Below are positions 14,083 to 63,251 of a stretch of 64,000 nucleotides of DNA, piece by piece (within the stretch, counting starts at the first letter, position 1; each line of letters begins with the position of its first letter). The notes under the pieces are model-generated. The model was not told the DNA's origin. It made no database searches and saw nothing but the letters and a program-made list of their open reading frames with translations. Source of the stretch: Hericium rajendrae (lineage: Eukaryota; Basidiomycota; Agaricomycetes; Russulales; Hericiaceae); NCBI GenBank assembly GCA_033439255.1, contig CM065888.1, positions 2,046,001-2,110,000 on the forward strand, read 5' to 3'. Made by a program: the position numbers and the translations under genes.

Positions 14083-14144
14083 GCGATCCTTTGGCCTAAA
14101 AAAAGCCCCTCCACCCTTCGAAACGTCCCTCCGCGCGCACCTGT

Positions 14145-37395: not shown

Positions 37396-37491
37396 CTTGG
37401 GGGGAGAGGGCCGATGCTTCGCACGGCAAGATGATTCCTTTTTTATTTATTTATTTAGTCATTAAAGTGCATAAATAAGTAAACTTGCTTC

Positions 37492-40400
37492 TCACTCTTT
37501 TGCATAATGCAAATTATCAAAACCTGACAGCATACCTTCAAACTCACATTGCCTACCAGTAGTTACTCCATCATAGTACCAGATTCTTTTTCCTTTGTCA
37601 ATAATTCTTGCAGTAAAATGAACATCTCCAAAATACACTATAGCCACCAGTTTGAATGATGTCTTTTCATTATTTGTATGATGCTTCATAGTAAATGAGT
37701 GATTTATTTTAATGTTATGATAGTCAAGTTCTACTGCTATCAATGGTGGACTGTTGTTGGTAAAAACAGTAGTAGTATGAAGTGCACTATTGCACTGAGG
37801 GCATTTTTTCATACTAATTCCATTCATAATTTTTCCTAATTCACTAGCAGTATTTGAGTCTGCAGACAAGCTAGAAATATGCCATACAAAATTATGAACA
37901 TTTTCAGTCACAGAATACTCACAAGATGTACAATTGTCTTCTACATATCCTACATCTGTTTGACATGCATTGAAGTATAACAGAGGTTAACTCTCTGATA
38001 TCAGTTCCCACTCCTTGTGTATTAGGAAATTTGATAGGGTCAAATTGTGTGAGCAAAGCTCTAACATTTTTTCTTACTAACTCAAAGTCAGAATGTTCCA
38101 AGTGAGTCCATTCATTATTCAATGTACTACAGTAATTGTTCAAATTTGCTAAGTGATCTTCCCAAAGATCTTTTTTTGTCCTAAAAATATGATAAAGGAT
38201 GGTAAACAATGTATCATATGCACAGCTCCAAGTTTGACCACACCATTTCAATCCAATAGGAGAAGAAACTTTTACCTTTGAAGTACCACTTGTTTTTTGT
38301 TTTTTTATCTTTCTTTTATCAGCAGCTTCTTTACTAACCTGATCTAATGCTTTTGTTCCATTTGCCGTATCAAAGCTATCTGGCTTCTCTTCAAATGTTA
38401 CAAGCTTTCTTTTCTTAAGATTATCAGGCTCCTCTATACTATTTTTATTAATTGTATCAGTCTTTTGTTTGACTAAAATTGTCCATTCTGCATTCTTTGT
38501 GTTATGAAGAAGTTCAAAAGGATCTGATTTTGTCCATTTGAGTGGAGCAGGCACATTTGGTGGGACATAGTCAACTCCTTTCCACATTTGATACTGCTGG
38601 ATGCGAGCTACTCTAGTAGGAGCATCAATGATTGCAGGAAGTTTTTTGTAATATTGAAGACAAGTTATTTCATCTAATAGCTCAAGCTCTCTAAATTCTG
38701 ATCTTAGATATCCAGGGAGTCTTCCTTTAATTTTGTCAGTATTAAACTGCTGAAGAATGGCTGTTCCAGCAATACTTGAGCTTCGTGAGAGAGCAGTATA
38801 GACTCCTCTTTGGTCCTTACAATTTTGAATATCAACAACATTGAATGGTCGTGTTCTTCCTTGAGAAGCATAGTCTGTCATTGAAAAGTTAGGTAGGATA
38901 GGAATCTGAGATCTACTAATCCATATTTCTTTATCATTGGGCATAAAGCATTTGATTTTCTCTTCAACTCTGGAGATAGGAACAACATTAAGAGGCAGCC
39001 CTGTGAGTTGCACTGGCTTAGGTGCACAAGTCAATCTCACAAAGACTACATCTAACACAAGCTTATCATCAATACCAGTATGACACTTCCATCCTACGAC
39101 CACACCTTCAGCTCCATTGGTAACACACATCTCAGTTGCTTCATTGTGTTTGAGCATGACAGGCATTCCTATACACAAAGATAATTTTCCTGCATAGTGT
39201 TTAGTCATAGATGGAATTAACTCCCATAGTTTTCTTTGCAAGGTAACGTGAATTTGATTGTTTGCTCTTATAGGATCACTATACATATTTTTTTTCTTTT
39301 TACTTGACAAAGATTCATCAGCCTTATGCCATCTATCTATAGAATAAAAGTGTACAAGCTTTTGGCCGGACTCTATTCCACATTGAATTGTTCCTGCTTC
39401 ATTAATTTCATCTCTCTGAATATTGAATGATGTAATGATAGATACATTTCGAAATTGAGGATCTGCAATGTTGGGTCTATTGGCCCCAGGTCCTATAATT
39501 CTAGATCTAAGAAGGTTGATATCATCTTCTGTACAATATTTGTATCTCATATTTTCTAAAGCTCTTCTGAATCTAGCATCATCAGGTGTCTGTGTTTTTT
39601 GGCGCATATTCTGTCTTAAAATTACCACAGTCACAAACTGATGCCATAATGCTTTTCCTAAACAAGCCTTTTGTTTTAGATGAGAATGAGTAGTGTGAAT
39701 TACAGTATCTACATCTTGGCTGTACAAGGCACTATTAGCAGGAGGAGGCAGTTGAGCAAAGTCACCAGCAAGAATGATGTTTACACCTCCAAAAGGCTGA
39801 TCTTCTACTTTAAGTGCACTGCTCATTTGGGCACTGATATTGTATAAACTATTGCAATCTACCATAGACACCTCATCTAAAAAGATGTACTGAACATGTT
39901 GAAGCCTAGTACGAATATCAGCCAGAGTAGATACACCTTTGCCTCCTTCTAGTTGAAATTTATTGATAGCTAACATAGAATGGTATGTCGATCCTCCTAT
40001 CAAAGCTGCTGCAGCTCCCGTAGGTGCCATGATTAAAAATTTGTAAGACTCTTGTCTCTGCTCAAAAAACTTGATCATAGCTTTGATGACTTGTGACTTG
40101 CCTGTGCCAGCCATACCCCCTAAATACATCTTGAGCTGCTCAGACTGTGGAGTCACAGCATGATTTGCAATAATTTTGAACGCTCTTGATTGCTCAACAT
40201 TTAGTGTGAATGTCTTAGCTATTTCATCAATGTTTAATCTATCCTCTGGATTTTTTGGATGATAATTGTAATCTAAATATGCTTTACTCACCAACTTGAC
40301 TTCATTTACATTATAAGGATCTCCATAGGAAGTATCATTATTCTTTTCTGCATTGCTAGCTTCAAGATCTCTTTTGGCCAAAATGATATCTTTTTCTCGT

Positions 40401-43400
40401 GCTAGAGTTGCTTTCCATTCCTTTTGAGACTTGGATAACATGACATTCTCATCAACAGCATTTTCTGTCTGCTCTACTTTACTTGGATTTAACCATCCAG
40501 TACCTTGAATAACTTTATGCATCTCATACATATCTGTCAGTCTTTTTTGTTGTTTTTTGCCTATATCATCCCATTCTTCTTGAAGCTTTTCTGTAAGACT
40601 ATCAACACCCCAGTTGGCAGTTGCTTCATCTTCATCATGTTGACCATCAAGCTCATGCTGAAATGTGGCAAAGATTTTATCACCAAAGCTATCATTCAGT
40701 GCTTGTTGTTTTCGTTGTGCAGAAAAATCATCTCTAGTATCATTGCATTCATATTTGATTTGAAAAAAATCCATCACCTGCTTTTGTCGAGAAGTAAACT
40801 TGTAATTCTCAAATGCATCATCCCATGACTGTTCTTTCTTTTTGAGATCCAGACCAGATCTCCAAGGCTTGAATAATGTAAGCATAGTCTGACAATACTC
40901 CTCTCTATTTCCTTTATCCCTTCTGGGCAAAGGACCTCCAGTGAAGTTTGGCACTTTACTTTTGCTCTCATCAAATTTATGAATATAATGACTTTTTAAT
41001 TGAGGATAAGGCTCAATAAATAACATTTTTGGTACTATTTTTTTCTTTGTATCTTGATTATGATTTTTTGGATCATAATCCTTATCATTTGGATCATACT
41101 CTTCATCCTCTTCTTCTTCATCAGTATATACATAGTCATCGTTCTCCTCCTCTTCATATTCTATCTCTTTTCTCTTTTCCTCTTCTTCTTTCACATCAAT
41201 GTCCATTTTTTCAGTATCATCCACATTCACATCTAAGATGTATTCATCCTTAGACTGTGATTTTTTACTTGAGGAATATGATTTTGATTTTTTTAGTCCA
41301 CTCAATGGCCTTTTTTCATATAGACGTATCCAATCATATAAAGTCACATCACTTAGTTCTTTTGGTCTATACATATAATCAAGAATTGGAGACAAGCCTA
41401 CTAACTTTCCTCGAATTTGATTTAGTATCACTTTATCAGGAACATTTTCATGAAAATCATCAATTTGATTCCAATCTTGGCTCACTTGTTTTACATATGT
41501 ACTCCAAAAGAAAACCTTGAACAAGTGACTTGTGTAGTGATCTGAATGAGACAAAAGATACATACATGCCATGGGAGATCCCATTTCTAATTTTACAATC
41601 AAAGAATTTACTATCTGAACTATTAACTTTCTTGCTTTTTCTTGTCTAGAGCTGTCACCACCAATATAAGTAGTATTTTTATCAAATACACTGCGAATAG
41701 CTTGAAACATGACATGAGTATTTAAAGGTGACTTGGTAATGTAGTCAGTAATATATGCAACAATAGACTTAATGGCAGTTCCTGAAAGCATACTAGTTAC
41801 ATCTGTATTACATCCCAAAAGATATGTTAAAGGTGTGGAAAATGTGTTGAGCATGGCCTCTCCTTTTTTCATGATAATGCTACCACTGTCCTTGTCTATT
41901 AAAGAAGCTAGATATGTGTCTCTTGGAAAACGAGCTTTGCAACTGTCATATTTTTTATTCTTGCAACCTCCTTTATCGCAACTGTGAACATTAGACAAAT
42001 ATAAAAGTTCATTGACTCTCTTTTTAAAATGTGTCCACCATGAACATGTTTCTTGACAATTGCTGCAATCCATTACATATTCATTTGTATTATGCTCCAC
42101 TTCAAAACTTGATACTAAAGGTACATCATCTTTTTTTACATGTATTTTGCATGGTTTGGGTGGAGCTTCTGGTAAAACTTGAGTTGGTTCAACATAGTGT
42201 ACATCCTTTTCTACTTGTTGTATCATGTCATTTTCTACTTTTGCCATAGTGCTATCTATAAATTCTCCTTGATGACAACTTTCTAAGTATCTAATCATCT
42301 CCTTTTGAAACTCTGAAGTAGGGTCTAAAATTCTATCTCTAATTTCCTGAGGTGACAAACAATCTTGAATCCAGATCATAGTATGCAAATGAAGGCTTAA
42401 ACAACCTTGTTGTTCCACAGTTCCATAGTATCCAGCAGTCTTACCATACAATCCTCTTCTTTTGTCATTGAATCTCAATACATGTTTGATAAACAAGTCC
42501 ACCATGAGTTTGAAAAACCTGGCACCTGCTACAGGATTGCTAGCAATAAGACGAAACTGCTCATCCTTTCCATAAAGCTTTGGATAGAATCTTATGTCTT
42601 TGTCAGCAAAATACAAACAGATAGGATGTTTAAGATCTGCTGGTGCAAATGTAATAAACCAAGACGGAGCACCCAAATATGATATAAGAGACCAGATCTC
42701 ATTTCTCATATATTTGCGACCTGTCTTTGAACCTTGTACATGATGAGCAACATGGTCCAAATCATTGATAATTTGATAACAGAGTTTTTCCTCATCTGTC
42801 TCTGGTTGTACTCTTTCTCCCTCAGCCAATCTATCTATAAGTTGACTCAGAACTTCTGGATTCACTGACATGAGTCTATCTGCTATATTGGAAAAATTGG
42901 CTTTTTTGGCCAAAAGGTAACCACCTGTTGTACTCTCTTTGATTTGATCGTGATTGATACAGACCAAGGGAAACATAGCCTCATATTGAAATCTTTTGTC
43001 ATGGTACATCAATAGATCATTTTTTCTTGCATGATCAGAGATTTTTACACTGCCATTGTTATTGCCAACACCCCCTAGGCCATATGAAAATAGCCATGGA
43101 AATATTTGAGGATAAAGCTGAGGATTGTTATATATTGACTCTGGATTTGCAGCTTGTCCAACTCCTAAAGCTCTGTTGTTCTTGCCTCTCATATGCTGTA
43201 AAGCAATTGCTCTAAGCTGTTGAGTAGTCTTTTTCTCCAAATCTCCACCTATCAAACCATGTACAATAAAGGGACATTTTCCAGACTCTACACCTTGAAG
43301 AGGTTCATCAGACACCGACATCATTCCAGACTCAATAGCATCATCTGAAATTTTGCACTCTACAACTACAGGAGGAATGTCTTCTGGATATGTGTTCAGA

Positions 43401-44824
43401 TTCTCATAAGATATATCCAAGTCAGCATAATCAATATGATTAAGCTTAAGCCATTCTAAAGCATGAGCAACTTTGTTTCTTCGAACCAAAAGAGGCGTTC
43501 GCTTAAATTCTTTTTCTGTAGGCTGAGTTTGACCTATATAAACAAATGCTATAACTTCATCTAATTCATCAAGGCTAGGTAGAAGCTTTGGATATATCTT
43601 AGGCATAGGAGTAGAGAAAAAAACTGCATTTGCTGACATTTTGTGTAAGCCAGACTTGTGCACGCGTACAATGCATCGGTTGTGACACACCCTTGAGATA
43701 AGCATCTTTTCTGTCCAGCTGAGATTCTGTAGCTGCTCTGGAATCTCACCTATCCAATTGCCATTGATTAGAGCATGTTTTGGTATCTTTCTCTTTTTTA
43801 ACTCTTGAAGACAAATATTACAGATGCTTTGTGAGTGTTTATCAAGTAAGGGTCCTTTATAAGATTGTATTATATCTGATGACATGTGTCTTTCCTGCCT
43901 TGCAATGAAAATATTGTCAGTTTCAAGGATAGACAAGTCTAAATCATGTTCAGACATATCTGTCAGATGTTGAAGTGAAGTCAAAAGACCACAGACACTA
44001 CATAAGTTCTCCAATATCATATTTGATTGTATATCATTACAGTATTCAGAAACAATATCTTCAATAAGTGTTTTTGAAGGAGGACTTGGAGGAAAACATG
44101 ATTCATCTTGCTGGACCTTCTTTGTATTTTTTCTATATTTTTTACATTTTATGCTATTTTTATTTTTAGCAAGTTTAAACAATGTGAAATATTGTTGACA
44201 ATTTTCTGTCTTACAGCTATGATTGTTCAATTTATTTTGCAAGTCTTGCAACATATTTTGATTGTTTGCTTGTATCTTATGTTGACAGCATATATTAATA
44301 ATAGCACTTTTTGTGAGCCTAGTCAGCTTGAAAATTGGAATAGAAGTTATAATCATATCATTAGCTGCTGGTATTAAATCTTCACTATGAGAAACAAAGT
44401 TCCAAGATGTGTTATTATGAAATATAGCATCTCCTTGTATAAAGTCTGAGATTTCATCATATGACCAAGTTGCCTTTGTAGTAGAACCACCTAACATTTG
44501 TGGCTTTTTGATATTTATTGACAACAAGATATTACTTTTCATACTATCTTGTGTGTTGTATGATATACTATCTTTATAAGATGATATCCATTCAATAAAG
44601 AAGGACTTTTGTCTGCTCAATTTGGCTTCGGTTATGCATAATAGCAATATTAAAATTAAGCACGTCATAACATGTAATTTTTGTAGTGCGAGCACCTTGG
44701 CCCAATTATTTGTACACTTTGATACAGGCACTTTGGCCAATGTTAGCTGCACGTAGCAATTGGAGTGGTCCTTATCTAAATATATCATCAAAGAACTCAC
44801 CACAAATATAGCAAATAATAGCAC
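37492..44824 (-). CDS. Helentron Rep / PIF1 helicase with C-terminal cysteine-peptidase-like domain
   Basis: Rolling-circle transposition protein of about 2440 residues. Visible in order: a low-complexity N-terminus (start uncertain), a Zn-binding-like Cys region, a DUF6570-like domain (about 370-500), a Helitron_like_N/Rep domain with HUH motif LHLHTMIWI at about 811-819 and the two-tyrosine motif AYITDYITK at about 1021-1029, an acidic linker (about 1210-1260), and a PIF1-type SF1B helicase with Walker A GGMAGTGKSQ at about 1566, Walker B FLDEVSMVD and DYASQGRTR. The tail has a Cys box GLKWCGQTWSCAYDT (about 2195) and, after 37911, a His/Asp box VHFTARI..YYDG, as in USP- or papain-like peptidases. 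The long frame and the last segment (37492-37911) are in different frames near 37955: a one-base slip or programmed shift. Confidence 0.9.
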
Positions 44825-44864
44825 TAAGGCGATGGTCTAAGCAAGGATCTCTACCTCGTTTATG

Positions 44865-45012: not shown

Positions 45013-47776
45013 TTAATCCTCCTTTTCGCGAGCAAGCAAGTAGACACCCTGGATGTTAAGACTAAGGTTGGAGAAATCGCCTTTCATCCAATGGGATGTG
45101 GTATGAATAATCGCAACTACATCTCCAGCATGCAAATCATCCTGAATCACCTTGACCTCAGAATGCGTATGAGCTCTACCGAACAAAAGAGATGGATCTC
45201 CTCGGTCAACAGATCCTCCATCACCAATACGCTTGTAAAGTGCGGTGCAGTCCCACACTAGAACTGTATAACAAAAAGATGGAGTTAGTTGATGAAAACA
45301 ACAAGATAGACGCACTTACCATCATAGGACACCGGAATGGCTCTCTTACTCATTCCTTTGATCCCCATCTTGAATGTGGCATCGGTCCCTGTAGCCTGAG
45401 AAGCTGGGCTAACATTGGACCACTTGTCTCGTGACTTGGAAGACGGAGTGGCCAACTCCTTGGAGCCTAATGTATAGTTCCACTTAGTATTTCAGGTTGA
45501 TAAAGATAATGGGCAAAACTTGCCGGATGACTGAGATTTCTTTTTGGAGGAAGAAGGTGCAACCGGACTCATCGCAGTTGAAAAAGGAAGTGCATTGTCC
45601 ATGCAGTATATGCTTAGCTTGGACTTCTGAAAGACCAGGCCGTAGAATGCCAAAGCCCTTTCCCATTCCATGCTCAAGGGAGAGACATAGAGCTCTTTGA
45701 TCTGACGTCCATCTAAAATAAGATAGTCAAATTGCATACAAGAGATGATAACAATAAAGAACATACTGCTTTCCAGCACCCGTGCATTGGCTAGATGAGA
45801 ATCTACAACAAATCCAACGGTGAGACACAAGGCTGTGCTTTTATTTCCATCCTTGAATGCAATAGCATGGCCGGTGCCTAAAGGCATAGCAACAAAGTCA
45901 CTTGGATCTGCACGAGAGGGATTCATCAAATTCAAAGATCGGTTCTCCTGAAATGTGATAATCTGAAGGAGATAGCTGTGCACATACCCTATTAATATAT
46001 TGTATGATGAAATGAGTTGAACAATAAACTTACTCGAGTGTAATGTTACCGTAGGCATCATCTGTCAGACGACTAACTGCATAGGTCATGACATCTACAC
46101 TGTCACCAATCAGACTAGTAGACGTGCTATAAGAAAAAAGAGTCGTAAGTCATTTGGAAAAGCTTACAACAAAAATCAAGCGTACTTTAGAGGTGGAAGT
46201 TGTTTGTAAAACATTGTCATAAGGGGATCAATCAACGTAGCGATGGTGACATTGCAGCCCTCTGGAATTCTGAAAGAAGAATGATTTAGTATTCCGATAG
46301 ATGTGACAATAACATACAGATTGTTGTCCATCACGTCCAAGTCAATGTTGTCTTGATTCTCTTTGTTTTCATCCGTGCTCTTCTGCACATCATCAGAAAC
46401 CATTGCATCTGTAGTGTCAGCAGCTTTGTCATCTAAAAAGACATCCTTTGATCTATAATGTGTAGGCAAATCAGCAATCATTCTACAGATAAAACTGTAC
46501 AACATACGTCTTCTGAGGATTAACCTCCTTAATCGAAAATGGACTGCCAAGTACAATTATAAAGCTAAGCAAGCTTGGACTATGCATGTGAAGAATGCAA
46601 TAAAATTACGTACTCATCATCTGATACCAAAGTACGCTCTTTTCTGCAAAGACAACAATATCAAGAAAGCAAATGTATGAAAAAAAATATATACGTACTT
46701 CTCGTTCATCTTCTGTTTCTTCGGAGCAGAAGCAGTCCCATTATTGTTAGTTGTTTCTGATGTTTTGCGTAAGCAGAGAGGCTCTCTTATTCTTATGTTA
46801 ATGCATATCTGAACAGTAAAAGATAAAAAAACTCACCGATCTGCTTTAGCCATCCGTTTAAAACGTGTAGTCAATGGAGTCTGCAACTCTGGCCTACACA
46901 CAAAATGGTCAGAAAAGTATGAAACAAAATCCCAAAAAGATAAGTGTACTCTTCATCGGACTCGAACGCTGGCTCTTCCAAAGCTCTCTTCCTACTGTCA
47001 ACAGCATTAGTCCAATCATATAATTGCACAAAATAAAGACATACGAGTTCATAGAACCTACTGAGCTAGCCAGAGATGATGTTCGGCTGAGTCCCTTGGG
47101 AGCCGAAGGTTGAACGGTCATCTTGGGCTTACAAACAGGGGTGGAAGGAAGAGCAAGGACCTTGTCCTTGTTCATCAGGAAGGTTGACAACTTTCTGATT
47201 GACCTGACAATTTCTAACCCTACTGACAGCTCCTGATTGACCTGATCCACCTGAAAGTAATCTTAACAGGCAAATATCTGATCAAACTTTTACATTTAAG
47301 TAAAGACATTTATTGTCAGATATATAAGTTTGTAATCTCTAACTAATAGATATAACAAAATCTCTGATATCTAAAATTTTCTAAATCTGAGAGTGTCTGA
47401 TCTGAGAATTTTTTCAAATCTGGAGGTCAAATATCTGAAAATTATCTGCAACTGTCTGAGAGCATCTGATGGTGTCTGACACTGTCTGATCCATCTGACT
47501 GATATTTGACCTCCAGATTTGAAATCAGACACTCTCAGATTTTCAAAAATTTCAGATATCAAAGATTTTGATATATCTATTAGTTAGAGATTAAAAACTT
47601 ATATATCTGACAATAAATGTCTTTTCTTGAATGTAAAAGTCTGATCAGATATTTGCTTCTCAAGATTGCTTTCAGGTGGATCAGGTCAATCAGAAGCTGT
47701 CAGTAGGGTTAGAAATTGTCAGGTCAATCAGAAAGTTGTCAACCTTCCTGATGTTGCTGCGAGACCGAGTATTCAT
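45013..47776 (-). CDS. Unrecognised multi-exon cargo gene 2, interrupted by MITE A4
   Basis: Probable start ATG at 47776 (MNTRSRSN), stop at 45013 (REKED). About eight introns of 45-55 nt with GTATGT/GTAAGT donors; one near 45525 seems to use GC-AG. The N-terminal third is basic and serine-rich (KPKMTVQPSAPKGLSRTSSL). The middle has an acidic stretch (DENKENQDNIDLDVMD) and RIPEGCNVTIATLIDP. The C-terminal half looks folded, with strand-rich GTGHAIAFKDGNKSTALCLT, ELYVSPLSMEWERALAFYG and a last exon DLHAGDVVAIIHTTSHWMKG that could be OB-fold-like. Helentrons often carry a single-strand-binding (RPA-like) gene, but no RPA signature was seen. MITE A4 sits after codon 8. Confidence 0.6.
47173..47753. 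mobile_element. MITE A4, full copy (581 bp)
   Basis: The target duplication is TT (47171-47172 and 47754-47755). It lies within exon 1 of cargo gene 2. Ignoring it gives a continuous frame MNTRSRSN to KDKVLALPST. It therefore arrived after G1 had this gene. Confidence 0.95.
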
Positions 47777-48910: not shown

Positions 48911-50161
48911 ATGTCTATACCTTTGATTGAGTTTTTAGACAAGCCAGATTGCCGTAAGTGATTGGTGTTTTGTCTCTGTATAGTTTGTCTCATGAATATG
49001 TAGGAGCACATCTTATAAAGATCAGTGATGATGCTGTAAAGCAGTTACCACGTCATCTTCAACTCAGCAATATGTCTGATGTGCGTATTCATACCTTACT
49101 ATTGTTAGAATTCAGCTAACTAGCTTTGTTAGATGAAGTTCTTGAGAGAGAACTATGTCGCACATAAAGCCGTAGATGGATCTGCAAAGGTTGTGTTGCA
49201 AAACTCGGATCCTGATGCGGAGATGGAGGAAGCCGTCTGGGAAGGACAAGGTGTCTTGTTAGACTATGACTTGCCACCAATTTTGGATCACAACAGGTGT
49301 GTTATTATCTGCTTTTGTCGTCTTTCTCTTTGCTTAAAAACATATGACAGTCTACCTACGAAGATCATTTGGGCGAAACAGAGCATTCGCCTACTAGGAA
49401 TAGGATCTCCTCTCTTTGATCAATCAGTTGCCGGTGTTGCAGCTATCTATCATCTCATAGATAGCATCTATTCGGTGAAAGGTCTCAGACCATGGGTTCC
49501 TGATCAAGTTGAGAGTCATGCAAGCCTTAGCTTTGCCAACCGTTACGTCACTCCTCTCTCACTTGTCAACGGCTCAAGTCCTGTACCCTTTGGGGATGTC
49601 GTGGATCCACAAGGCATCTTGCTACTGGCCACATCCACTGCAGGTGCTCATCTTGATGATAATAAGGTTGAGTACTATGAAAGAAAGTGGAACAGCACGT
49701 ATGTCAACTCTATGCCGACTCTTGTGTTGTATTTTACTAATGTTAAAACCTCTAGATCTTCTGATTATCACTATATCACTATTGATCCAGCCATCATTTG
49801 ACCTGGTCAGATTGTTCAGGTGCAAGTGTCTTTTGTTACGGTACCTCTGTCTGGAAAAAAAAGGTTGTATCAGATAGCATGCAAGTTGCGATCTGTAGCT
49901 ATTCTTGATCGTCAATTGCAAGAGGTAAATTTGTTTGTATCTTTGTATAGATGAGACTTACAGATAGATTGTTACTAGGCCTATGATATGCAAGCATACT
50001 CTATTGAGTTTCAGAAGAAGGCATCTCCTCCAAAGGTATTGAAAAGGTGCATTGGATATGTGGTCTCAGTTGACGCTATGTCAAAAGAGGTGAAGAAGAC
50101 AAAGAGCACGGTCGTAGAAGGCTTAGAGGACACCTTTATGCAAGATTCTAGTTCTGTGTAG
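48911..50161 (+). CDS. Unrecognised cargo gene 3, type frequent near Agaricomycete transposons
   Basis: Start ATG at 48911 (MSIPLIEFLDKPDCR). Exons about 48911-48953, 49004-49080, 49133-49295, 49350-49924 and 49977-50161, with GTAAGT/GTGCGT/GTGTGT donors. The stop is at 50159. The core has IRLLGIGSPLFDQSVAGVAA, a DUF-like middle, then DPAII, stop, PGQIVQVQVSFVTVPLSGKK and CKLRSVAILDRQL. From memory, proteins with an 'FRPGDIVE..SF..VP' core are common in transposon-rich Agaricomycetes and have no assigned function. The in-frame TGA at 49799 stands where that core has Arg, which a C-to-T change of CGA would give. Confidence 0.55.
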
Positions 50162-50284
50162 ATCAATATTGTTTGTTGCGAAGTATTTTTTTTGGATTAT
50201 CTGTACGCATGATACCTATTCAATACTTCATTCCGTCCATCTGTTACAAGTTACTATAAGACAGATTAAATCAGAGTTGATCAC

Positions 50285-53200
50285 TTATAAATATATAAGA
50301 CATCTTACCAACTGCTCTAACCCAAAGTTCCACAGTCGAGATACTTTACATAAAGTATGTTCCAGCATAATAGGATCAAACACCATCTTCTCTTTCTCTT
50401 CTATAGTCAGCCGTGCATCTAGAAAATGAAATAGCAAAACAAATGCATCTTTGATGACCATCTTGTTTTTCTCCTTAGGATGGATCAATTGTAATTTTGC
50501 TAGGCCTTTCAGTGCTCCTGCTTGGATCTCTGATATAAGTTCACCCATATCATACTCTGATGGCATATCAATGACATCTGTATAAGCATAGTCTGCAGTG
50601 AGAAGCCACAAGCAGTCCAAAGCCATAGAACATGACTTCATTTGTTTTTGACTTTTTGTTTTTGATGCACTTGTAGAATGCTGTAAAGGAGCAATGTGCT
50701 GTTCTTTCCACCAAATTCTTCCATTCTATGTTTGCTGCCCTCCAATATTTGTCTGCATGTTCAACACTACGCTGGGTTGGACAACTATAAGCTGTGGTGT
50801 TACAGAAATAATTTGAGGATTTATTGGATTTAAGGCTGTCATAACAGGCTGACCAGTCTTTTAGGTCTGAAAACATGGCCTTCTGATCCAAGACAAACTG
50901 GCAACCATAAGTGATGCCACGGAAGATCAGAGCACTGAAAAATCCAGCTTGAGAGTGAACATTTGTTGGTGAAAAAGGAGTATCATCTTCTCTCATCCTC
51001 ACAAGACTTGGTGCACGCTGACGAAAGGGAAGATAATGGTCAAGTCGTGTAGCCATTTTTGTAAGGAGAGCCTGATGTTCTGGAGGTGCAGATTCTAGAT
51101 CACCTGTAAATGACAGCTCATTCTTCAAAGAAGATCTATCCAGGAAGAATATAGCTGCATGCAGAAACTTTAGACATTTTATGTGGCCAAGTGGAGGATG
51201 AGAAAATAGAGGAGGATGTGGTGAAGGGGAATGTCTCTCTTCAGACTGACTAGCAGTAGAGGGAATTGGCAAGGTCTCAATATGTTTACGAGCATCTTTG
51301 TTGAAACCAGAATATTGATCACAAACATCATTGATGGACATCATGAGTTTATGCTCCTCCGTGTCTGGTATGACAATAGCATGATGAGATAGCCAAGTTG
51401 AAAAATGTTGTAAATCATCTTGAGATACGGAGTGCCGTAGCTTTTTCTTTGCCACCATTGGACTAAATCCACAGAAGAGAACAAAAGTCTTTTCCAAGTA
51501 AAGAATCTCTATCCCTGTTTATCATGATGAGATATTATAAAATATTACTATTGATATATAAACATACCTGCAATAGAGACTAGATTCTATACAAATACTG
51601 CTTGAGCAACAGCGTGAGGAGAGACAGTTTGATCAGGATTTAACCATTGTCCTAAAGTCATTCGTAAAGATTGCTGAAGAAAGTGTTTTCGAGGGCTAAA
51701 GTCAACAGAGCTGAGATCATTGCGACAAGGTGGGAGACAGATAACACTGGGCACAGTAGAAAGATTTGAAGTAAAATGGGATGGTGTCAGAGTGATATTG
51801 CATGAATTAGTTGCATTAGCAGCAGCCAACAATATTCGCCCAAGCTTCACAATCCAGTTTTCTTCATCCTCAGCATGGACATTCAAGACTTGATCTGCAT
51901 AGTAGCTTGCAATATGATCAATCCATAGCCATGCTGTCATATGAGACATCATAACTATAAATTGATTGCAACGAGTGTCTAGAGATTGAAGTGCAATGTT
52001 ATGAAGAAGATCAGAAATGTTTTGTAGGCCTTTCTGAACTGAAGGCAAAGGATCCAGACATCCAGGAGTGCATTTTTTAATAGCTGTTGCCATGTTGCTG
52101 AGGCTGATATGTGTAGACGGCCCCACAACATAACTAGAGGAGGATGCAGAAATGGAGTTTCTATGAGTAGAGAGTGCTTCCAAGTCATTTTTGAGTGATT
52201 CTACTGAAAAGTATTCTGCTCTTGATGTTAGACTCATATTGTTAACTAAAAAAAAATCTCCATACCTTTCCATCGTAAAATAGAAGAAAACAGAATACCA
52301 TCTCTATCATCAGATTCTTTTGAGGAAAGCATATCTTTAAAGCACTCTTGGCTCCAAGATAGGGTCTTCTCCACATTTGCAAGGCTTTTTTGTACTTGAT
52401 CAGCACTGTTCTCCTCTTCTTGTTCATCTTCATTTTCCTGTTCTTCATCATCATGTTGTTTATCTTCATCTTGCCACTGATCTTCATCTGAAGCATCTCT
52501 CATTTCTTCATCTTCATCTTCATCTTCATCTGATCTCATACTATGCTCAGTATATAATAAATATGTTATATGTAATTGTTGAAAACTAACATGCATAATT
52601 CACCCTGTGGCACAACCTCTTGCTTCTTCGTATTCCTTCTTCATTGTCATCTTCTCTGGTCCTTTTCTTTCCTTTGTCTGATGTTTTTTCCTTGTATGGA
52701 GAAATAAGTGCATCTGCTACAGATCGTATTTTCTTGTTTATGTTGGAATGTGTTTTCAAACTGCCAACAGAAAAGTGCTTAGGTTTGCGTAGTTTTGCTA
52801 TTACAAAGAAAAAATGTTGAGCAATTAGTCTTAGCTAATGCACTATAAGTTAATTACTACCTGGCTTGGATCTTGTATAGGCCTTTGTCTTTCCTATATA
52901 AAAGATAATTTAGTTGAATCTCTTTTATATCAAAAAAATGTAAACACACCTCCCAAATAACTACCACCTAACACTTGAGACTCTAATGGATTATCTGGAT
53001 CAATGAATAGCTTTGGGAAAGACTTGTGATTGCTGGGCATAAGATTGTAGTTTTGAATTAACCATTCTTTCCATCTTTTCAGGACAGGATGTCTTGGATC
53101 TTCTACCACTTCTTGGCCATTTGTAGCGGATGGAACCACAGTGATAGGAATAGTATCAATGTTATCGATATGCACTGCAACTTGACCAGGTGCTAGAGCC

Positions 53201-55014
53201 CAAGTTTTTGCAACATATCGATGAGATGAATTTGAATCTGCTGATTTGATGCTAAAAGCAGAGACAAACTTGTCAACATCAATTTGAACCTATAGAGTGA
53301 AATATCAATAATCAACAAAATAATCAAGTAAGAACAACAAACTTGAAGCTTGGGCCAGATCTGTGCACATATGAAAATACACAACAACAGAAGATGTCGT
53401 ACAATAAAATCAAGTAAGGAGTCAGGCTGCATGATGATGTGTCCATCTCTAGCCCAGCTACCCTTGCCAGCATTGATGGGATTATCTGTAGTGTCACTTC
53501 TATCCTCTGGACTAAATTTACAAAGATAAATCAATATATATAGCTTTAATATTACAAGTAGAACTCACTAATATCTAACTTCAGGACCTAAAGGTAAAAA
53601 GCCTTCCTTTGATGATTTTGAGGACCAAGCGCACAAAGGTAAGATGCCTTTCATATCATACAAGATATCATTTGGATAACCAATAGCATTGAGGCGAACT
53701 GTAGTCTTCAAGGCCGATGGTGATGTTCCTAAAGGAGCCTTTGGAGAAGTACCACCATGCATAAGCAAGCCTGAAAAATAACAAGCCAAAGTATCCTCTA
53801 GCATGATGAAAACACCAAGCTCTAGCAAGTGAAAGCGACCAGGATCGTATCCATTTTTAGGATGCTTGGAATGAGAAACCATAGCAGTAAAAGCTCCAAG
53901 GGCATCATATCCATCTTTATGTTTGCCACCATAATGACCAAGGATAGATGCAAGATCCACATCTATGTAGATATTAATTTTGAATCTTTGTTATATTCAT
54001 TTCAATTTTACTAACCTGCTTCAGAAGTAGTGGCATTTGAGATATTTACTTGCATGGCCTGGGTCATAAAATTGTCTGACGATCCAATTTTGGGAAAAGA
54101 TGCAAGTCTGCAAAAGACTGAACATAATTTTGTATGCCTGGCAAGCATTTATAGCCCTCTGAAAACAAGCCAGTAGTTGCCTATACAGCTTTAGCCAAAT
54201 TGATATTGGAAAGATCTTATAAACCTACATCCAATAGTTCTTTAGACATCTTCTGTGCATCTGTCAACTCTCCACTTTTCTCTAACTTGCCATTTTTTGA
54301 AGGCGCAAAAAGATGTGGTGGCTTTTGATGTGTTGGTCCAATCTGATATGTTCTACCTGATTTATCTGGCAGAATACCAGTACGCTCAAAAGCAGTACCA
54401 CCCAATAATGTTTTAGAATCCAAATCCCACACAGGCATTGATGCTGTACTCTCCTCCTCTTCTCCAAGAGCATTTTCCAATGCCTGTTGCAAATGCTCCA
54501 TTTTTTCTGAAGAGAAAAATTTTCTATCACATAAAGTTCTTGAATTAGTATAGTGATACCAAGCTAAAAAGTTTAAACAACATACCCTGCTATCATGGTT
54601 CCCTGAAAAAGATCCTTCTTGCCTGTCACATCTCCATCTTGTTGTGATCGTACAAACACCATATCACCAGAATTCAACTGAATCAAGCCTGACAAATATT
54701 ATTTTTATTAGTAGCTGTCCAAAAATGTTAGCAAAACACTCACCAAATTTGTCTTTCATCTCTCTCAAGGTACCCCGAGGTACTCCAACTCGAGCTGCAT
54801 ACTCTGCATTTTTCTGCTTGCCTGCTGAACTTGTATCCACTATGCACACATATGTTGTACCATCCTTGAATGTATTGTACAAAGAATCATTGCTATTCAA
54901 AAAGTTCTTTGCATGCAGAGGATGATCTGGCCATATGCTAATAGGAGGAAGTTCAGAATCCCGACCATGTAATTGTAATGATTTTAGATCATTTGGTAGA
55001 GTTTGAGAAGCCAT
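50285..55014 (-). CDS. TET/JBP-like 2OG-Fe(II) dioxygenase with long acidic C-terminal region
   Basis: Start ATG at 55014 (MASQTLPND), many 40-80 nt introns, end at 50285. The dioxygenase-like core lies at about 54020-53570: MQVNISNATTSE, then GGKHKDGYDALGAF (HxD iron ligands, 53913-53921), PGRFHLLELGVF, FSGLLMHGGTSP (second His, 53757) and VRLNAIGYP (Arg for 2-oxoglutarate, 53694). This order and spacing fit the TET/JBP family expanded in basidiomycetes, whose members oxidise 5-methylcytosine or thymine. Downstream are a region with PRHPVLKRWKEWLIQNYNLM, a basic nuclear-type stretch (KGKKRTREDDNEEGIRRSKR), an acidic run (SDEDEDEDEEMRDASDEDQW) and an unrecognised domain (51497-50285). One in-frame TAG (about 51588) and a frame change near 50640 suggest decay. 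It could be two genes. Confidence 0.5.
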
Positions 55015-55642: not shown

Positions 55643-55737
55643 GCGTCCGCAGCACGGGCGAAATGATGTACTCCTGTCCCATGACATCACCAGGGGGACG
55701 GCAGTACGTCATTTTGCCCGTGCTGCGGATTACGTAA
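55643..55737. repeat. Palindrome ii (G1 copy)
   Basis: GCAGCACGGGCGAAATGATG and the inverted CGTCATTTTGCCCGTGCTGC flank CCATGACATCACCAGG. It is followed by GGATTACGTAA, as in H1 and H2. Confidence 0.8.
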
Positions 55738-55865
55738 GGCCCAATCGTGATTTCCGGTGCAAGTGCTACCTCTTGCTCTTTCTCCAGGTAAGTACTTCGC
55801 TCTTCTCGCATTCTTCTCGCGTAGTTGGGGCAGGGTGGAATGTTGGGAGGCTTTGCAGACCACGC

Positions 55866-56990: not shown

Positions 56991-57077
56991 TTATCACGCT
57001 AGGTAGCATACCACTGTATTGTATATTAGGGACTTCGAATAAAATTTGTTTCTTTTTTTTTTTGTCTCGCAATCCTG

Positions 57078-57187
57078 AGGGATCACGTGCGACAGCGAGG
57101 ACGGTGAGGGATCACGTGCGACAGCGAGGACGGTGAGGGATCACGTGCGACAGCGAGGACGGTCGGGCTCGCTGTCGCACATGATCA
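57078..57187. repeat. Palindrome i with triplicated left arm (G1 copy)
   Basis: GATCACGTGCGACAGCGAGG occurs three times in 29-bp steps, followed by a single inverted arm CTCGCTGTCGCACATGATC. It lies about 170 bp before the start of the JmjC-like gene, so it could be a promoter element (CACGTG boxes) or a replication site. Confidence 0.8.
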
Positions 57188-57356: not shown

Positions 57357-60300
57357 ATGCCTCCTAAGCCAGCACAGCCTGATATCAGGTATGACCCCTG
57401 AGTCCATTTCTGATCTGATATCTCATTCAAGTCATCCCTTGCCAGTTTCATACCTTCTAAGGAGTTCAGTAAAGCCACCATCCATCCAGCCGTAGTGACT
57501 GTAGATAAGGCACAAGAGAAGAAGGCAGACTTCAGAGTAGAGGCAAAGCTGCTCCACACCCTACCCTGGTTCAATGGAGATATCATGACTGTCTCCACAA
57601 TCCGAACCTTGTTGCAGGGAAGGCATGCACATGCACCAGACAGAGAGGCCATGAAAATGTTGGTACTAGCAGATCAGGATGCTGAAGACTGGTTGTCTAC
57701 TGTCTATGAGGTAATGCCATACTCTTCATTCTATTTGTGATGCTGTGATTAAATGTCATGCAGACCTTTCTCACACACATGGATTCTTGGGGCAAAGAAG
57801 GGTTCTATGACTTGCCACCTCCAGAAAAAGCCAATCTCTGGAGGCTTATGGTTGAAGGTGGTAAAAATCTAAACAATGAGCAGGAACGCAAAGAGATCTT
57901 CAATGCGGTTCTGAACCTCTATTCTGGTCATCTGACTCTGGTCACAAATGTGATCGCACGATACCAGATTGTCGATGTCATCTGCAAGATTCACGATATG
58001 ACTCCTGCTCGAGGCCAGAAGCACTTGCATATGCCTCAGATTGCTGCATACAAGCAGCTTGTGCAAAAGACTAGTCTTTTGAAATCAGTATGAGCTATTA
58101 TTCTTTTTTTTTTGCTTAATAATCTGATGTGTCTAAGGTGGTGGATGATCTAAAGTCTTGGCCAACTATCATTGACAAGGCATATGATGCATTTCATACT
58201 CCCAACAAGCTAGCACTCTCTGATGGAACAGTGGCCACCACATCAACATCAGGAACCTTCAAAACTTTCTGATGAACCCTGCAGAGTCTGATCAACTGCA
58301 AGACCTGATTCAGCTGCAGGCTCTAATTAGAGGACAATTTCTGATCAGAGATTTTATATTTTGAAGTCAATAACTATTGGCAGATATAGTAGTCATCCAA
58401 CTCTAATCATTAGATGTAACAAAGTTTTCAATATCTAAAATTTACATGAATCTGATCAGTTCTGATCAGTCTGCGAGCATTCTGCATTGATACTTTTTTG
58501 AATCTTGAGGTCAAATATTCTGCAGCTAGCTGAGAGTAGCTGATGCTGTCTGAGAGTATCTGATGTGTCTGATGCAACTGCTGCAGATCATGCAGACACT
58601 GTCAGATGCCTCGCAGGTCAAACAGAAAGTTTTGAAGGTTCCTGATGAAGTAACAGTATCACATCTGCAACTGTGAAAGTCCTTGAAAATCATTGGTCAT
58701 CAGGAATATGGAATGATGAGGTTGCAGCTCAGATCACAAGTGCTCTCTTGGAGGGTGTGATGAAGAAGGAACAGGCCAACTTATCCTTTCGTATCATTCA
58801 GCATTTTGAGATAGCAGCTGCTGGCCTGCAGGCTTTTATGAAGGTAATAGAGCTCAATTTCTTATACCTTACTACAAATTTAATAATGTAACTGTAGGCA
58901 TATATCTTCATCATTGAAGATGATATATTCTGGCAAAACATATTTATGTAAGTCATATTATCTAGACTTAATGAACCATTTGTTTTTAATATCAGTCTTG
59001 TTATAGAGATGCTGATCTATCAGATGATAAAATTAAAAACATGGACAAGCCTAAACGTTCTAAATGGCTATCACCCATTCTACTTTGCCTATCTTTCTCT
59101 CCTATTGTGCTATTTCTGAGACGATCATTGCATATAGAGGCCTTCAGTCGATCTGCATATCTACAGGTATGTTCTATTTAGTAATATTATTTTCTCTGTT
59201 GATATCAAACATATATATATTCTAGGTCATGATTCTTCTGGGAAATGTGCAGCGGCCTCCACATCTGGTCAAATTTGAGAGAATGATCTGGATTGCTTTG
59301 TTTGCTATTGCACGTGGTGCACCTGCCAATGTGCATGTGCCAGAACTGTTGCAATTTTAGAAAACCCATTTTTCTAAAACTGAAGATATAGCAGATGAGG
59401 CCACCTGGTTTCAGGAGCCCAAATATGGTTAGAGTTTACAATATGATCTTTGATTTTTGCTGATCTAATACTCTTTTTAGGACGAGCAGAACAGCAGGAT
59501 GAGCCAACATCTTCTGATAAAGCTGAAGAACACCTTTCCCAAGATATAGTGCTGAATGCAAAGACAGAGAAATTAGTTCATAGTTTGCCAGATGACTTTA
59601 GAACTACTATTGCTGAGGTCATGGCTGGCTTAGATTTCAGTAAGGTAGATCCAAATGCAATTGTACAAGGTCTTGTGGCAGTTTGGAAAAGCAATCCAGG
59701 TAAGTCTTAATTTGCTATGTATTCAATCCAATAATCTAATATAATTATCTTTTAGTTAAAAAATCAAAGTCTCCAAGGCAGAAGAAAGTGGTGAAGAAAT
59801 TAGTTGAGGTAGAGTCAGAGTCAGAGGATTCAGAGGAGGATTCAGAAGAGGAGGATTCAGAGCAGGAGGAAAAGCAAAGGAAAGTTAAGGAGAAGGAGAG
59901 AAAAAAGGAGAAGGAGAAGAAGGAAAAGGAGCAGAAGGAGAAGAAAGAGAAGGAGAAGGAGAAGAAGGAGAAGGAAAAGAAGGAGAAGGAGGAGAAAGAG
60001 AAAAAGGAGAAGGAGAAAAAGGAGAAGGAGGAGAAGGAGAAAGAGCTGCAGAAGAAACAACAAGACAAAATAGCAGAGCAGCCAGAGGAGCAGACACAGG
60101 AAGAGATTCAGATCAGGGTGGATCCTAACAGGTTTATCAGAAACATGCAAGACAGAAAACAAGGTAGTGTTCCAGACAACAAAATCATTCAGGCTCTTAA
60201 AAACAAGATCAATACACTGCATCATGAGCTGGCTAACATACCAGTAAGCTTCTGATCCTACTATTTTTGTTTGCATATAACAATTCTAATCATATATTAG

Positions 60301-62449
60301 AAACTGCCTGCATTAGATAAGAAACCTGCTAAGGTATGCATGCTATATTATTCAGAGCTTTATTACTGACTTGCTTTGTTTAAATTAGCTAAATTCTGAG
60401 CCTATCATGCTTCCTGCATACTGTGCAAAAAGAGATGATATGGTCAATGTTCCTTATATACCTCTTATTATGGAGAATGAGGTGAGTGACTACAAGCTTT
60501 ATTTTGTTTTTACCACTAACACTTAGTATTCAATAGGACGACTTTCAGGTTACTTTAGGCAACAAGCTAAAAACTGCTTTATTTGCCAGCCTACAGCCAG
60601 ATGGACAGCCACGCATGTGTAACAAGTCTGCCAAACAACAGGAACATCCTGACAGAGACACTAGCTCAGCAGTCTATGTTACCTCCTGTGACAGTTTTGC
60701 AGATCTAGACACCACTATCATTCAAAGCATCTTCTCTCGCAGGCATATCTTGGTGCATAGTCAGTCTAGTTCCAGAAGATGGAGTTGGAATGAAGAGTCT
60801 ATAGGAAGATTGGGTGATCTGGATGAAATTATTGAAATTCAAGGTAAGATTATATTTATATCATAGGACAGAAACTAATAAATGTTTATATGGCAGATAT
60901 GGCTTATAGGTCTGCAGACAATGCACAGGCGCAGTTGAGAAAGGGCATACGCCATGACATTCTTCTAGCAGGCATAGATCCAGAACTGCTTTCAGAAGAT
61001 CTGTGCACCTTGTATGATGGCAAGATCTTGAATGGGTTAGATAATGCTTGCCCAGAACCTTTGGCAGAAATGCCCAACTTTAGGTATGATTATAATTTAC
61101 ATCTGTTTTCTAATTATACTAACTAAGGAATACTCAGCTCTCTAGCCAGTCATGAACTTGTCTTGAGGCACTCTGAGGCTATTTTGCAGACTCATCTGCA
61201 TGATAGGCCAACGACTGATTTGTCCTGGGCCACTGTAGCAACTAAAGGGTCTATTTCAGACTTCCATGAGGATACAGATGGTCTAGCTACAGCTTCAAAG
61301 CCTTTGGTTGGTAGCAAGCTCTGGATTCTGCTTACACCCAAAGATCCATGGAAGGACGATATCAGCAACTTGAACACCTATCTGGACATCCATGACTTTT
61401 CTAATTTAGATCTCAATGAGTACTATGTAGAAGCTATTCTCTTGCAGCCAGGCCAGACTCTGTAAGTAAAAATAATTGTTCTTTTGCTCTTCAATTCTGA
61501 CTTTTGACATTCATTTAGCTATCAATGGCCTTGCACTCGACACTGGGTGTATGGAATTGAGGCAACCATGGTTTATGGTCGGCATTTCTATGCCCAAGCC
61601 TGCTTGGATCGTAGCTTTTTTGGACAGATTCATTCTCAGATGCTGGGAACCATTCACAATAACACATCTCATCCATCTGTCTGTCCTATACTAGCTGATT
61701 TTATGGCTTGGTGGGCTTATCTTTTAGACCATCCCTCTTCTGGTGGTGAGTCATATTTTACATTTATCTTTAATATTCTGTCTAATTATATTGTAGCTCA
61801 ATACCCAGACATCAACACAGTTCAAGGGATGCACATCTTTTTGGCAGCTGCACATGCTGTCATCTTTGCACCAACCTTATCAGCTGTCAAGAATCTTGTG
61901 CCTCGACCTGATGCTACAGCTCAAGCTCACAAAATTATCAATGGACTGGCTTTGACAAAGATGATGAAGCACTACCTCAGTGAAGGTTGTCAGGAGGAGT
62001 GGGCCTATCCTCTGAAATTTTTTACTAGCATCAGCAGAGATGTTGCTCAAGCTTGGATCCACTATAGTGAGCAGATTGAGATCAGGCCAGATCTTCTTCA
62101 AGCTATTGGCCCAAGAAGGTCCTCTTCTGATCTGTACACCTCTCTCTGCTCTGATCTAAACAAGTTCTGGAGCAAGAAGCTGAATATTCAAGAGGAAATG
62201 GATGAGTGGTGGTTGGATAAAGATGCTGACCTTCCTGAAAGCCTACAGCCTTATGTTGGAGATGAATCAAGACCTGTATGGAAGAAGGCTGATGACTATG
62301 AGAGTCCTCGCTGGGTGGAAACTCACTTTGAATCATCGTTGGCAGTTTGGGAGACTATAGGTGGGGGCATAGCAGAAGAAGAGCTAGAAAAGAGAAAGAT
62401 GGGAGATCAGGATTCAAGTCAGCCATCCAAGAAGACTCGTCACAAATAG
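57357..62449 (+). CDS. JmjC-like dioxygenase cargo gene, interrupted by MITE B3
   Basis: Start ATG at 57357 (MPPKPAQPDI), stop at 62449, about 15 introns of 40-60 nt. The N-terminal half is helical and unrecognised (TLPWFNGDIMTVSTIRTLLQ, KEGFYDLPPPEKANLWRLM). A linker at 59760-60110 is a highly charged KEK/KKEKE coiled stretch after an acidic serine run. The C-terminal third carries a JmjC-type core: SDFHEDTDGLAT (HxD, 61265-61273), GSKLWILLTPKDPW, LLQPGQTL then TRHWVYG (second His, 61541) and YGRHFYAQ. It ends in a basic tail (KKTRHK). JmjC enzymes are Fe(II)/2-oxoglutarate hydroxylases, many of them histone demethylases. An in-frame TAG near 59357 may be a CAG-to-TAG change or part of an unrecognised intron. 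Confidence 0.65.
58247..58647. mobile_element. MITE B3, full copy (401 bp)
   Basis: The target duplication is AA (58245-58246 and 58648-58649). It lies in exon 4 of the JmjC-like gene. Ignoring it gives a continuous frame VATTS to SNSITSATVKVLENHW. Confidence 0.95.
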
Positions 62450-63094: not shown

Positions 63095-63200
63095 AAAAAG
63101 TCAGGCCAGAGCTGGAATTGAACCTGCAAACTCGTCAGATTGATGATCTTGCAATTACATAAGCCAACTGCCAAATGGGGATGGTCATCGTTTTGGTGTC
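63095..63200 (-). promoter_or_regulatory. tRNA-like Pol III module at the G1 5' end
   Basis: Minus strand: GGCAGTTGGCTTATGTAATT (A box-like), then GGTTCAATTCC (63124-63114, B box, one mismatch to the tRNA consensus GGTTCGANTCC) and TTTTT at 63100-63096. GCAGG/CCAGC can form a T-arm stem around the box. It lies 127 nt from the element end, as in H2 and N2 (126 nt). No full cloverleaf was found. Confidence 0.45.
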
Positions 63201-63251
63201 GTTTTCGATAGGAAAAGCCGGTATAGAGTAAACGATTCTAAGGAATCGTAA

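What the first reader, a model, noticed from the sequence alone, without database searches (positions are those of the whole stretch)
37396..63251. 25.9 kb Helentron with exact ends, proven by a split MITE
The two flanking MITE A halves (407 and 174 bp) sum to 581 bp, the length of two uninterrupted copies, and the MITE's own AC duplication is intact outside. This fixes the element's ends to about a base and shows insertion at A|T with no duplication. Known fungal Helitrons are usually much shorter, so a 25.9 kb unit with at least five genes is unusually large.
Basis: partly seen in the sequence, partly recalled or inferred. Interest (0 to 1): 0.9.

Follow-up and report, generated by a model that had tools for sequence, protein, structure and literature searches.

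The report
Very large gene-carrying fungal Helitron
A 25.9-thousand-base rolling-circle jumping element has landed inside a smaller jumping element, so its ends can be read almost to the base; it is a known type of element but unusually large and carries several extra genes, possibly ones that erase chromatin marks.

Summary
MITE A is split into 36989-37395 (407 bp) and 63252-63425 (174 bp). Joined, they align over 581 positions without a gap to two uninterrupted copies in the window (572 of 581 identical to the nearer). The MITE's own 2-bp duplication (AC) is intact outside. The 25,856-bp block therefore entered an A|T site with no duplication or loss; its ends are uncertain by one base. Two relatives with the same kind of ends also interrupt MITEs at A|T. 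The block encodes an open RepHel frame of about 2,300 codons.

The label 'Helentron' is not supported: no endonuclease domain was found, and the target is A|T rather than T|T. Hairpins at both ends and 10-bp asymmetric inverted repeats fit Helitron2. Ends do recur with unrelated interiors in the window; these look like non-autonomous relatives and do not undo the split-MITE proof.

The interior holds about four intron-bearing gene models and two later MITE insertions. One gene is probably JmjC-like (one weak Pfam hit); one looks like a 2OG-Fe(II) oxygenase by motif only. At nearly twice the largest fungal Helitron in the papers I read, it is a large variant of a known kind. No second copy could be sought: no genome is held.

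The parts
37396..63251 (-). Helitron2-type element E5, 25,856 bp; 5' end at 63251, 3' end at 37396
   Evidence: Both ends at the break of a split MITE; gap-free rejoining
36989..37395 (+). left part of MITE A copy A3 (407 bp), with the first AC duplication at 36987-36988
   Evidence: 97.8% to 47173-47579; flanks
63252..63425 (+). right part of MITE A copy A3 (174 bp), with the second AC duplication at 63426-63427
   Evidence: 100% to 47580-47753; flanks
63212..63251 (-). 5' terminus TTACGATTCCTTAGAATCGTTTACTC..., hairpin from base 3, containing the 5' asymmetric inverted repeat ACGATTCCTT
   Evidence: fold; four further 5' ends alike in the window
37396..37450 (-). 3' terminus: inverted repeat AAGGAATCAT 35 bp from the end, hairpin GCCGTGC-GAA-GCAtCGGC, end CCCCCCAAG
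   Evidence: fold; four further 3' ends alike in the window
37919..44824 (-). RepHel open reading frame, 2,301 codons from a GTG (first ATG 13 codons later); HLH (HUH), YITDYITK (two tyrosines), GMAGTGKS and LDEVSM motifs present
   Evidence: Pfam DUF6570 1.7e-40, Helitron_like_N 4.3e-30, PIF1 4.3e-26; motifs (motif meanings recalled)
37492..37986 (-). reading frame continuing the RepHel C-terminus in another frame (short intron or frame change); cysteine-peptidase-like motifs by eye only
   Evidence: only weak zinc-ribbon hits below cut-off, best DZR E 0.0024; no peptidase hit
45013..47175 (-). gene model of unknown function, 5' end at MITE A1
   Evidence: spliced model; only a weak Transposase_24 match, E 0.067, below cut-off
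47173..47753 (+). MITE A copy A1 nested in E5, 2-bp duplication TT
48911..50161 (+). gene model of unknown function
   Evidence: 222-codon frame at 49133-49798; spliced model; no Pfam hit
50220..55014 (-). multi-exon gene model; HKD...HGG motif (exon 53569-53962) suggests a 2OG-Fe(II) oxygenase, possibly TET/JBP-like (motif reading only)
   Evidence: no oxygenase hit in Pfam and no PDB hit
57357..62449 (+). multi-exon gene model with JmjC-like core (61238-61606); interrupted by MITE B1; start chosen by eye (the script chose 57191)
   Evidence: Pfam JmjC E 0.16, below cut-off, on a 104-residue core only
58247..58647 (-). MITE B copy B1 inside the JmjC-like gene, 2-bp duplication AA
29626..34914 (+). 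relative E4 (5,289 bp; no frame of 140 aa or more except one of 155 aa) with the same kind of ends, splitting MITE B3 (29465-29625 and 34915-35154) at A|T
28333..35454 (+). relative E3, holding MITE B3, which holds E4
19567..21057 (-). relative E2 (1,491 bp), which has the site empty where E3 has MITE B3
1..370 (+). 3' part of relative E1, inserted in a MITE A copy (rest at 371-599)
   Evidence: 98% to E4 over 370 bp

Best explanation
The block is one autonomous-type Helitron2 element. RepHel would nick at the 5' terminus, unwind and copy one strand, stop at the 3' hairpin, and insert the product (probably via a circle) at an A|T site without duplicating it. Shown here: the ends, the insertion without duplication or loss, the open RepHel frame with its catalytic motifs, and several relatives with the same kind of ends. 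Inferred: the rolling-circle steps, trans-mobilisation of E1-E4 by an E5-type RepHel, present activity, and transposition of the other gene models as part of the unit. Two MITEs jumped into it later, one of them into a cargo gene.
For: Gap-free rejoining of the split MITE with both Helitron ends exactly at the break. The same A|T insertion of relatives into two other MITEs; with E5, 3 of 3 reconstructed sites, the E1 site being read from its 3' side and the intact copy because its 5' side is outside the window. RepHel domains and motifs. Asymmetric inverted repeats (7 to 10 of 10 bases in 4 elements) and two hairpins with one compensatory pair change in each. No further 5' or 3' end inside the block at the mismatch limits used. 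No LTR-like pair of long direct repeats in the block; only tandem arrays and a 112-bp pair at 48271-48605.
Against: Only one copy of the full unit is visible, and no other genome, read set or empty allele could be searched. Cargo brought in by an older insertion without recognisable ends is not excluded; the scan for nested inverted-repeat elements is of limited power (MITE B1 itself, at score 33, was inside the range of the controls). The 3' inverted repeat lies 35 bp from the end, a little beyond the 20-30 bp given for Helitron2 in PMC3627910. In the 5' hairpin one changed pair is lost in the orphan end (C, A) and is T-G in E2. The RepHel C-terminus changes frame, and one cargo gene is interrupted, so this copy may be partly decayed.
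Confidence: 0.82

Rival explanations
1. A shorter Helitron inserted in MITE A3 and later grew in place: other elements or a host segment entered it, so the 25.9 kb has never moved as one piece.
For: Two MITEs demonstrably entered afterwards. Cargo genes lie in both orientations. GC is 0.35-0.37 over RepHel and 0.51 at 56-58 kb, where tandem arrays lie. The 45013-47175 model has a weak Transposase_24 match (E 0.067, below cut-off). The nested-element scan would miss short inverted repeats, as it scored MITE B1 within the control range.
Against: In that scan (repeats of 12 or more, at most 2 mismatches, duplications of 2-9 bp) only structures of MITE A1 exceeded the best control score of 34; the non-MITE hits scored 28 or less. 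No LTR-like direct repeats, no second set of these Helitron ends inside, no transposase hit at cut-off in the cargo frames and models tested.
Confidence: 0.25
2. A true Helentron with an endonuclease.
For: Sub-terminal inverted repeats and a 3' stem-loop are shared with Helentrons and their non-autonomous partners (passages of PMC4067079).
Against: No endonuclease family hit in RepHel (up to E 0.01) or in the frames and models tested; target A|T, not T|T.
Confidence: 0.05
3. Assembly artefact: two MITE copies collapsed or mis-joined around a block from elsewhere.
For: An almost identical MITE copy lies inside the block (right part 100% identical to 47580-47753), the kind of repeat that misleads assemblers.
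Against: The break falls at the exact Helitron ends on both sides, and relatives with the same kind of ends behave alike in other MITEs. A mis-join would not choose these bases.
Confidence: 0.04

Closest known systems
Helitron2 (Bao and Jurka 2013, PMC3627910, abstract and passages seen)
   Same: 5' T start; 5' hairpin containing the 5' asymmetric inverted repeat 0-2 bp from the end; 3' repeat upstream of a 3' hairpin; compensatory changes; no endonuclease (the last from PMC4067079)
   Different: Target A|T rather than TTTT|T/C; 3' repeat 35 bp from the end rather than about 20-30; 25.9 kb with cargo
FoHeli1-5 of Fusarium oxysporum (PMC5148889, abstract and sections 6, 10, 13, 14 read)
   Same: Fungal Helitron2-like elements; asymmetric inverted repeats, hairpins, non-autonomous copies, doubled 5' termini
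   Different: About 5-11 kb; other end sequences; FoHeli1 and 2 insert at TNAT|A; no comparable cargo in the sections read
proto-Helentron-Pi of Phytophthora infestans (PMC4067079, passages seen)
   Same: 5'-TT start, A|T insertion, no duplication; [quoted passage not shown]
   Different: 3' CTAG end; about 14 kb; an oomycete
HELPO1 Helitrons of Pleurotus ostreatus (PMC4289320, two passages seen)
   Same: Fungal Helitrons with captured genes
   Different: Up to 13.7 kb in the seven table rows seen
TET+ Helitrons of fungi (Kojima 2025, PMC12730594, abstract, passages, sections 23 and 34 read)
   Same: Helitrons carrying a dioxygenase gene, one of them a Helitron2 in Agaricus bisporus
   Different: The A. 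bisporus Helitron2 must be of PE type (HxE) by the paper's lists; the candidate here reads HKD and its membership is unproven; the word JmjC does not occur in that main text

Membership tests
Helitron superfamily | RepHel with HUH Rep domain, two tyrosines and PIF1-type helicase | tested here: met
   Pfam hits; motifs HLH, YITDYITK, GMAGTGKS, LDEVSM (meanings recalled)
Helitron superfamily | Insertion without target duplication | tested here: met
   3 of 3 reconstructed sites, one of them from its 3' side only
Helitron2 | Short asymmetric inverted repeats, the 3' one sub-terminal | tested here: met
   10-bp repeats agree in 9 (E5), 10 (E4), 9 (E2) and 7 (E3) of 10 bases; 35 bp from the 3' end in 5 of 5 3' ends
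Helitron2 | Hairpins at both ends | tested here: met
   3' hairpin in 5 of 5 ends; 5' hairpin with 7 pairs in E5, E4, E3 and with 5 pairs in E2 and the orphan end
Helitron2 | RepHel clusters with Helitron2 in a tree | not testable with these tools
   No named Helitron proteins were available; viral contigs gave no relative
Helitron2 | Target after TTTT (the Chlamydomonas elements) | tested here: not met
   A|T in 3 of 3. Targets vary among Helitron2-like elements (PMC5148889), so this is not taken as excluding membership
Helentron | AP endonuclease domain fused to RepHel | tested here: not met
   None among the hits of RepHel up to E 0.01, nor in the frames tested up to E 1
Helentron | Insertion in TT | tested here: not met
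   A|T
Canonical Helitron1 | 5'-TC and CTRR-3' ends, no 5' hairpin | tested here: not met
   Ends TTAC and CAAG, with a 5' hairpin
TET+ Helitron | TET/JBP dioxygenase domain in the element | tested here: inconclusive
   HKD...HGG motif only; no oxygenase hit in Pfam, no PDB hit; fold model unusable

The most novel reading that the evidence does not exclude
A giant Helitron2 that carries its own pair of chromatin-mark erasers, a TET/JBP-like DNA dioxygenase and a JmjC-like protein, and uses them to escape both DNA and histone silencing; it would be a rolling-circle counterpart of large cargo-carrying fungal elements.
Probability: 0.2. Interest if true: 0.75.

Novelty: new variant of a known kind. 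Interest (0 to 1): 0.5.

Why it matters
Ends proven by a split MITE give a clean example that a fungal rolling-circle element can span about 25 kb with several intron-bearing gene models, whereas a 2019 review calls capture of full-length genes by Helitrons exceptionally rare (PMC6431247, passages). If the oxygenase-like genes are real and recur in other copies, anti-silencing cargo in Helitrons becomes directly testable. The nesting (E4 in MITE B3 in E3, with E2 showing the empty site) also gives a relative order of insertions.

Tried and rejected
Relatives were sought without success. No whole genome is held. RepHel, the JmjC-like exon and the oxygenase-like exon found no confirmed relative in viral contigs (these scans reach close relatives only), and the 26-base 5' end had no exact match there. 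In phage records RepHel matched 315 records, all under 60% identity; the 10 rows listed all lie on the helicase part, 24-29% identity. Genome contigs was not scanned.

Single-sequence structure models of a JmjC-like stretch and of the oxygenase-like exon were unusable (mean pLDDT 33.7 and 38.3), so no fold search was run. NCBIfam gave RepHel two helicase families (RecD2, RecD) and two weak ATPase matches, and nothing for four cargo frames. Rfam gave no match in the window at gathering level. A cysteine-peptidase reading of the RepHel C-terminus (OTU- or USP-like) was considered; the motifs are suggestive by eye, but Pfam gave no peptidase hit (only weak zinc-ribbon and PPE hits below cut-off) and the PDB only two chance-level matches (E 1.3). 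A VTD domain as in PMC9741609 (passages) was considered and has no support. The JmjC hit appears only for one trimmed core of 104 residues; its two halves given apart in the same call and longer pieces gave no JmjC hit, and the PDB gave none or only chance matches. Weak, below-cut-off Pfam matches to other families (RRN3 E 0.011, DUF6978 E 0.04, Transposase_24 E 0.067 and others) were not taken as evidence. A sixth hit of the 3'-end pattern at 6892 (5 mismatches) was dropped because no repeat or hairpin was seen by it.

Because of the second, the main reading was lowered from 0.85 to 0.82 and the 'grew in place' rival raised from 0.20 to 0.25.
Full report
The observation. The two flanking pieces of MITE A, 36989-37395 and 63252-63425, join to 581 bp. 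They align over all 581 positions, without gaps, to two uninterrupted copies: 47173-47753 (98.5%, 572 of 581) and 11901-11321 (97.6%). The MITE begins CATCAGG and ends CCTGATG. Its 2-bp duplication AC is intact outside, at 36987-36988 and 63426-63427. The 6 of 6 near-full MITE copies of families A and B with both ends in the window have such duplications; a short fragment at 21829-21915 was not examined. Exactly at the two break points lie the two ends of a Helitron. One base (A) is shared by both sides, so the ends are known to within one base.

More of the same in the window. A scan for the two ends (at most 7 of 26 and 5 of 18 mismatches) gave five 5' ends (28106+, 28333+, 29626+, 63251-, 21057-). 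It gave six 3'-pattern hits; five are taken as ends by their context (370+, 34914+, 35454+, 37396-, 19567-), and the sixth, at 6892, was dropped. They form E1 (up to 370), E2 (19567-21057, 1,491 bp), E3 (28333-35454), E4 (29626-34914, 5,289 bp) and E5, the finding; the 5' end at 28106 has no partner. E4 splits MITE B3, and E1 interrupts another MITE A. With E5 this makes three interrupted MITEs, and 3 of 3 reconstructed sites are A|T (CTAA|TAGA, TCAA|TGCA, GAAA|TCAG) with no duplication; for E1 only the 3' side is in the window, and the base before it is read from an intact MITE. E4 lies in B3, and B3 lies in E3. E2 is the relative without B3 (E3 against E2: 1,275 of 1,420 ungapped positions identical, 79 gap positions), and it shows the empty site with the TA duplication of B3. 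E4 shares with E5 about 280 bp at the 5' end (79%) and 49 bp at the 3' end (84%), and otherwise only repeats of the 5' region; E2 shares the two ends, a 92-bp palindrome and a 39-bp stretch. I read these as non-autonomous relatives.

The termini. The 5' end TTACGATTCCTTAGAATCGT forms a hairpin from base 3. The 3' end has the inverted repeat AAGGAATYRT, then the hairpin GCCRTGC-NNN-GCAtYGGC, then CCCTCTYCCNCCAAG; the repeat ends 35 bp from the end in 5 of 5. The 5' stem carries a C-G to T-A change in E3; the same pair is T-G in E2 and unpaired (C, A) in the orphan end. The 3' stem carries a G-C to A-T change in E1 and E4. This matches the description of Helitron2 in PMC3627910 (passages): 8-15 bp asymmetric repeats, a 5' repeat 0-2 bp from the end inside a hairpin, and a 3' repeat upstream of a 3' hairpin. 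It differs in target (A|T against TTTT|T/C) and slightly in the distance of the 3' repeat (35 against about 20-30 bp). FoHeli1 and FoHeli2 have 38-51 bp and another target (PMC5148889). A 5'-TT start with A|T insertion is also known from proto-Helentron-Pi (PMC4067079, passages). Helentrons are defined by an AP endonuclease (same source). None was found in RepHel or the tested frames, so 'Helentron' is not the right name.

RepHel. One frame of 2,301 codons from a GTG (37919-44824, minus; the first ATG is 13 codons later) has Pfam DUF6570 (1.7e-40), Helitron_like_N (4.3e-30) and PIF1 (4.3e-26). It contains HLH, YITDYITK, GMAGTGKS, LDEVSM and YTALSR (the meaning of these motifs is recalled). In 30 order-1 Markov sequences of the block's size the longest stop-to-stop frame was 187 codons; observed 2,305, with 9 frames of 150 or more against a mean of 0.17. 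The C-terminus continues at 37492-37986 in another frame, by an intron or a frame change; this is not resolved.

The cargo. A simple splice model of my own, trained on frames of this block and not checked against transcripts, gives four further genes: 45013-47175 (minus), 48911-50161 (plus), 50220-55014 (minus) and about 57357-62449 (plus). For the last the script chose a start at 57191 and a faulty join at the MITE; the start at 57357 was read by eye. Pfam gave no hit at its cut-off for any cargo frame or model tested; weak matches below cut-off include Transposase_24 (E 0.067) for 45013-47175 and RRN3 (E 0.011) for 50220-55014. By eye the 50220-55014 product has HKD...HGG in a context like 2OG-Fe(II) oxygenases of the TET/JBP kind. 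This rests on recall and found no support in Pfam or the PDB. The 57357-62449 product has DFHED...GSKLWIL...YGRHFY, which recalls JmjC. For a trimmed core of 104 residues the only one of 24,736 Pfam families reported was JmjC, E 0.16, 12.9 bits against a cut-off of 24; longer pieces and the two halves of the core gave no JmjC hit. I take JmjC-like as probable and TET-like as possible. MITE B1 (58247-58647) sits inside the JmjC-like gene and MITE A1 (47173-47753) at the edge of another, so the cargo was present before these MITEs arrived.

One unit or several? No other end of this family lies inside E5, and no LTR-like pair of direct repeats. A scan for inverted repeats of 12 or more with flanking duplications gave 218 hits against 136-175 in 10 Markov controls. 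Only structures of MITE A1 exceeded the best control score (34); MITE B1 scored 33 and the non-MITE hits 28 or less. This speaks weakly against a nested DNA transposon carrying the cargo: long inverted repeats would have shown, short or decayed ones would not. A second full copy, the decisive test, could not be sought because no genome is held for this window and the collections searched gave no relative of use.

Comparison with print. FoHelis are about 5-11 kb. HELPO1 elements reach 13.7 kb in the seven table rows seen. A 2019 review gives 14 kb for fungi and 39 kb for maize. Searches showed no larger fungal Helitron in the passages I read; most listed papers were seen only as listings, and most subscription papers are missing from the library. 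Helitrons with a TET/JBP gene were described in 2025, including a Helitron2 in Agaricus bisporus, by the paper's lists of the HxE type (PMC12730594). A dioxygenase in a Helitron would therefore not be new in itself; a JmjC partner would be, as far as one search shows (one paper listed, on stramenopile epigenetics, seen only as a listing).

Verdict. A real, precisely bounded, unusually large Helitron2-type element with several gene models. It is a variant of a known kind; its mechanism is inferred from anatomy, and its cargo functions are unproven. The host is probably a fungus, perhaps a basidiomycete, judging by the short introns of the models and the transposon content (inference).

Noticed in passing
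28106-28332: An orphan 5' Helitron end (88% to the first 169 bp of E5) directly upstream of E3's own 5' end, like the doubled 5' termini reported for FoHeli; its upstream flank is T, not A.
   Followed up: partly
11321-11901, 47173-47753, 3557-3957, 58247-58647, 29465-29625/34915-35154: Two MITE families with CATCAGG...CCTGATG ends and 2-bp duplications of varying sequence (TT, CA, AC, AA, TA, TA with A3), like the CA..TG ends and 2-5 bp duplications of the CMCT clade in PMC12730594.
   Followed up: partly
20147-20247, 29089-29184, 55646-55738: A palindromic repeat of about 90 bp occurring in E2, E3 and E5, possibly a small fold-back element.
   Followed up: no
56285-56896 and 14136-14660: GC-rich tandem arrays (about 160-bp and 80-bp units), one inside E5 and one outside.
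   Followed up: no
57076-57163: Three identical 29-bp repeats just before the JmjC-like gene; a similar palindromic stretch (GCGACAGCGAG / CTCGCTGTCGC here) occurs in E2 and E3 (by eye).
   Followed up: no
1502-6064: Retrotransposon frames; part of the first matches the RNase H domain of reverse transcriptase (Pfam); the integrase reading of the second is by eye.
   Followed up: partly
17125-17562: A frame resembling a Copia RNase H piece (by eye).
   Followed up: no
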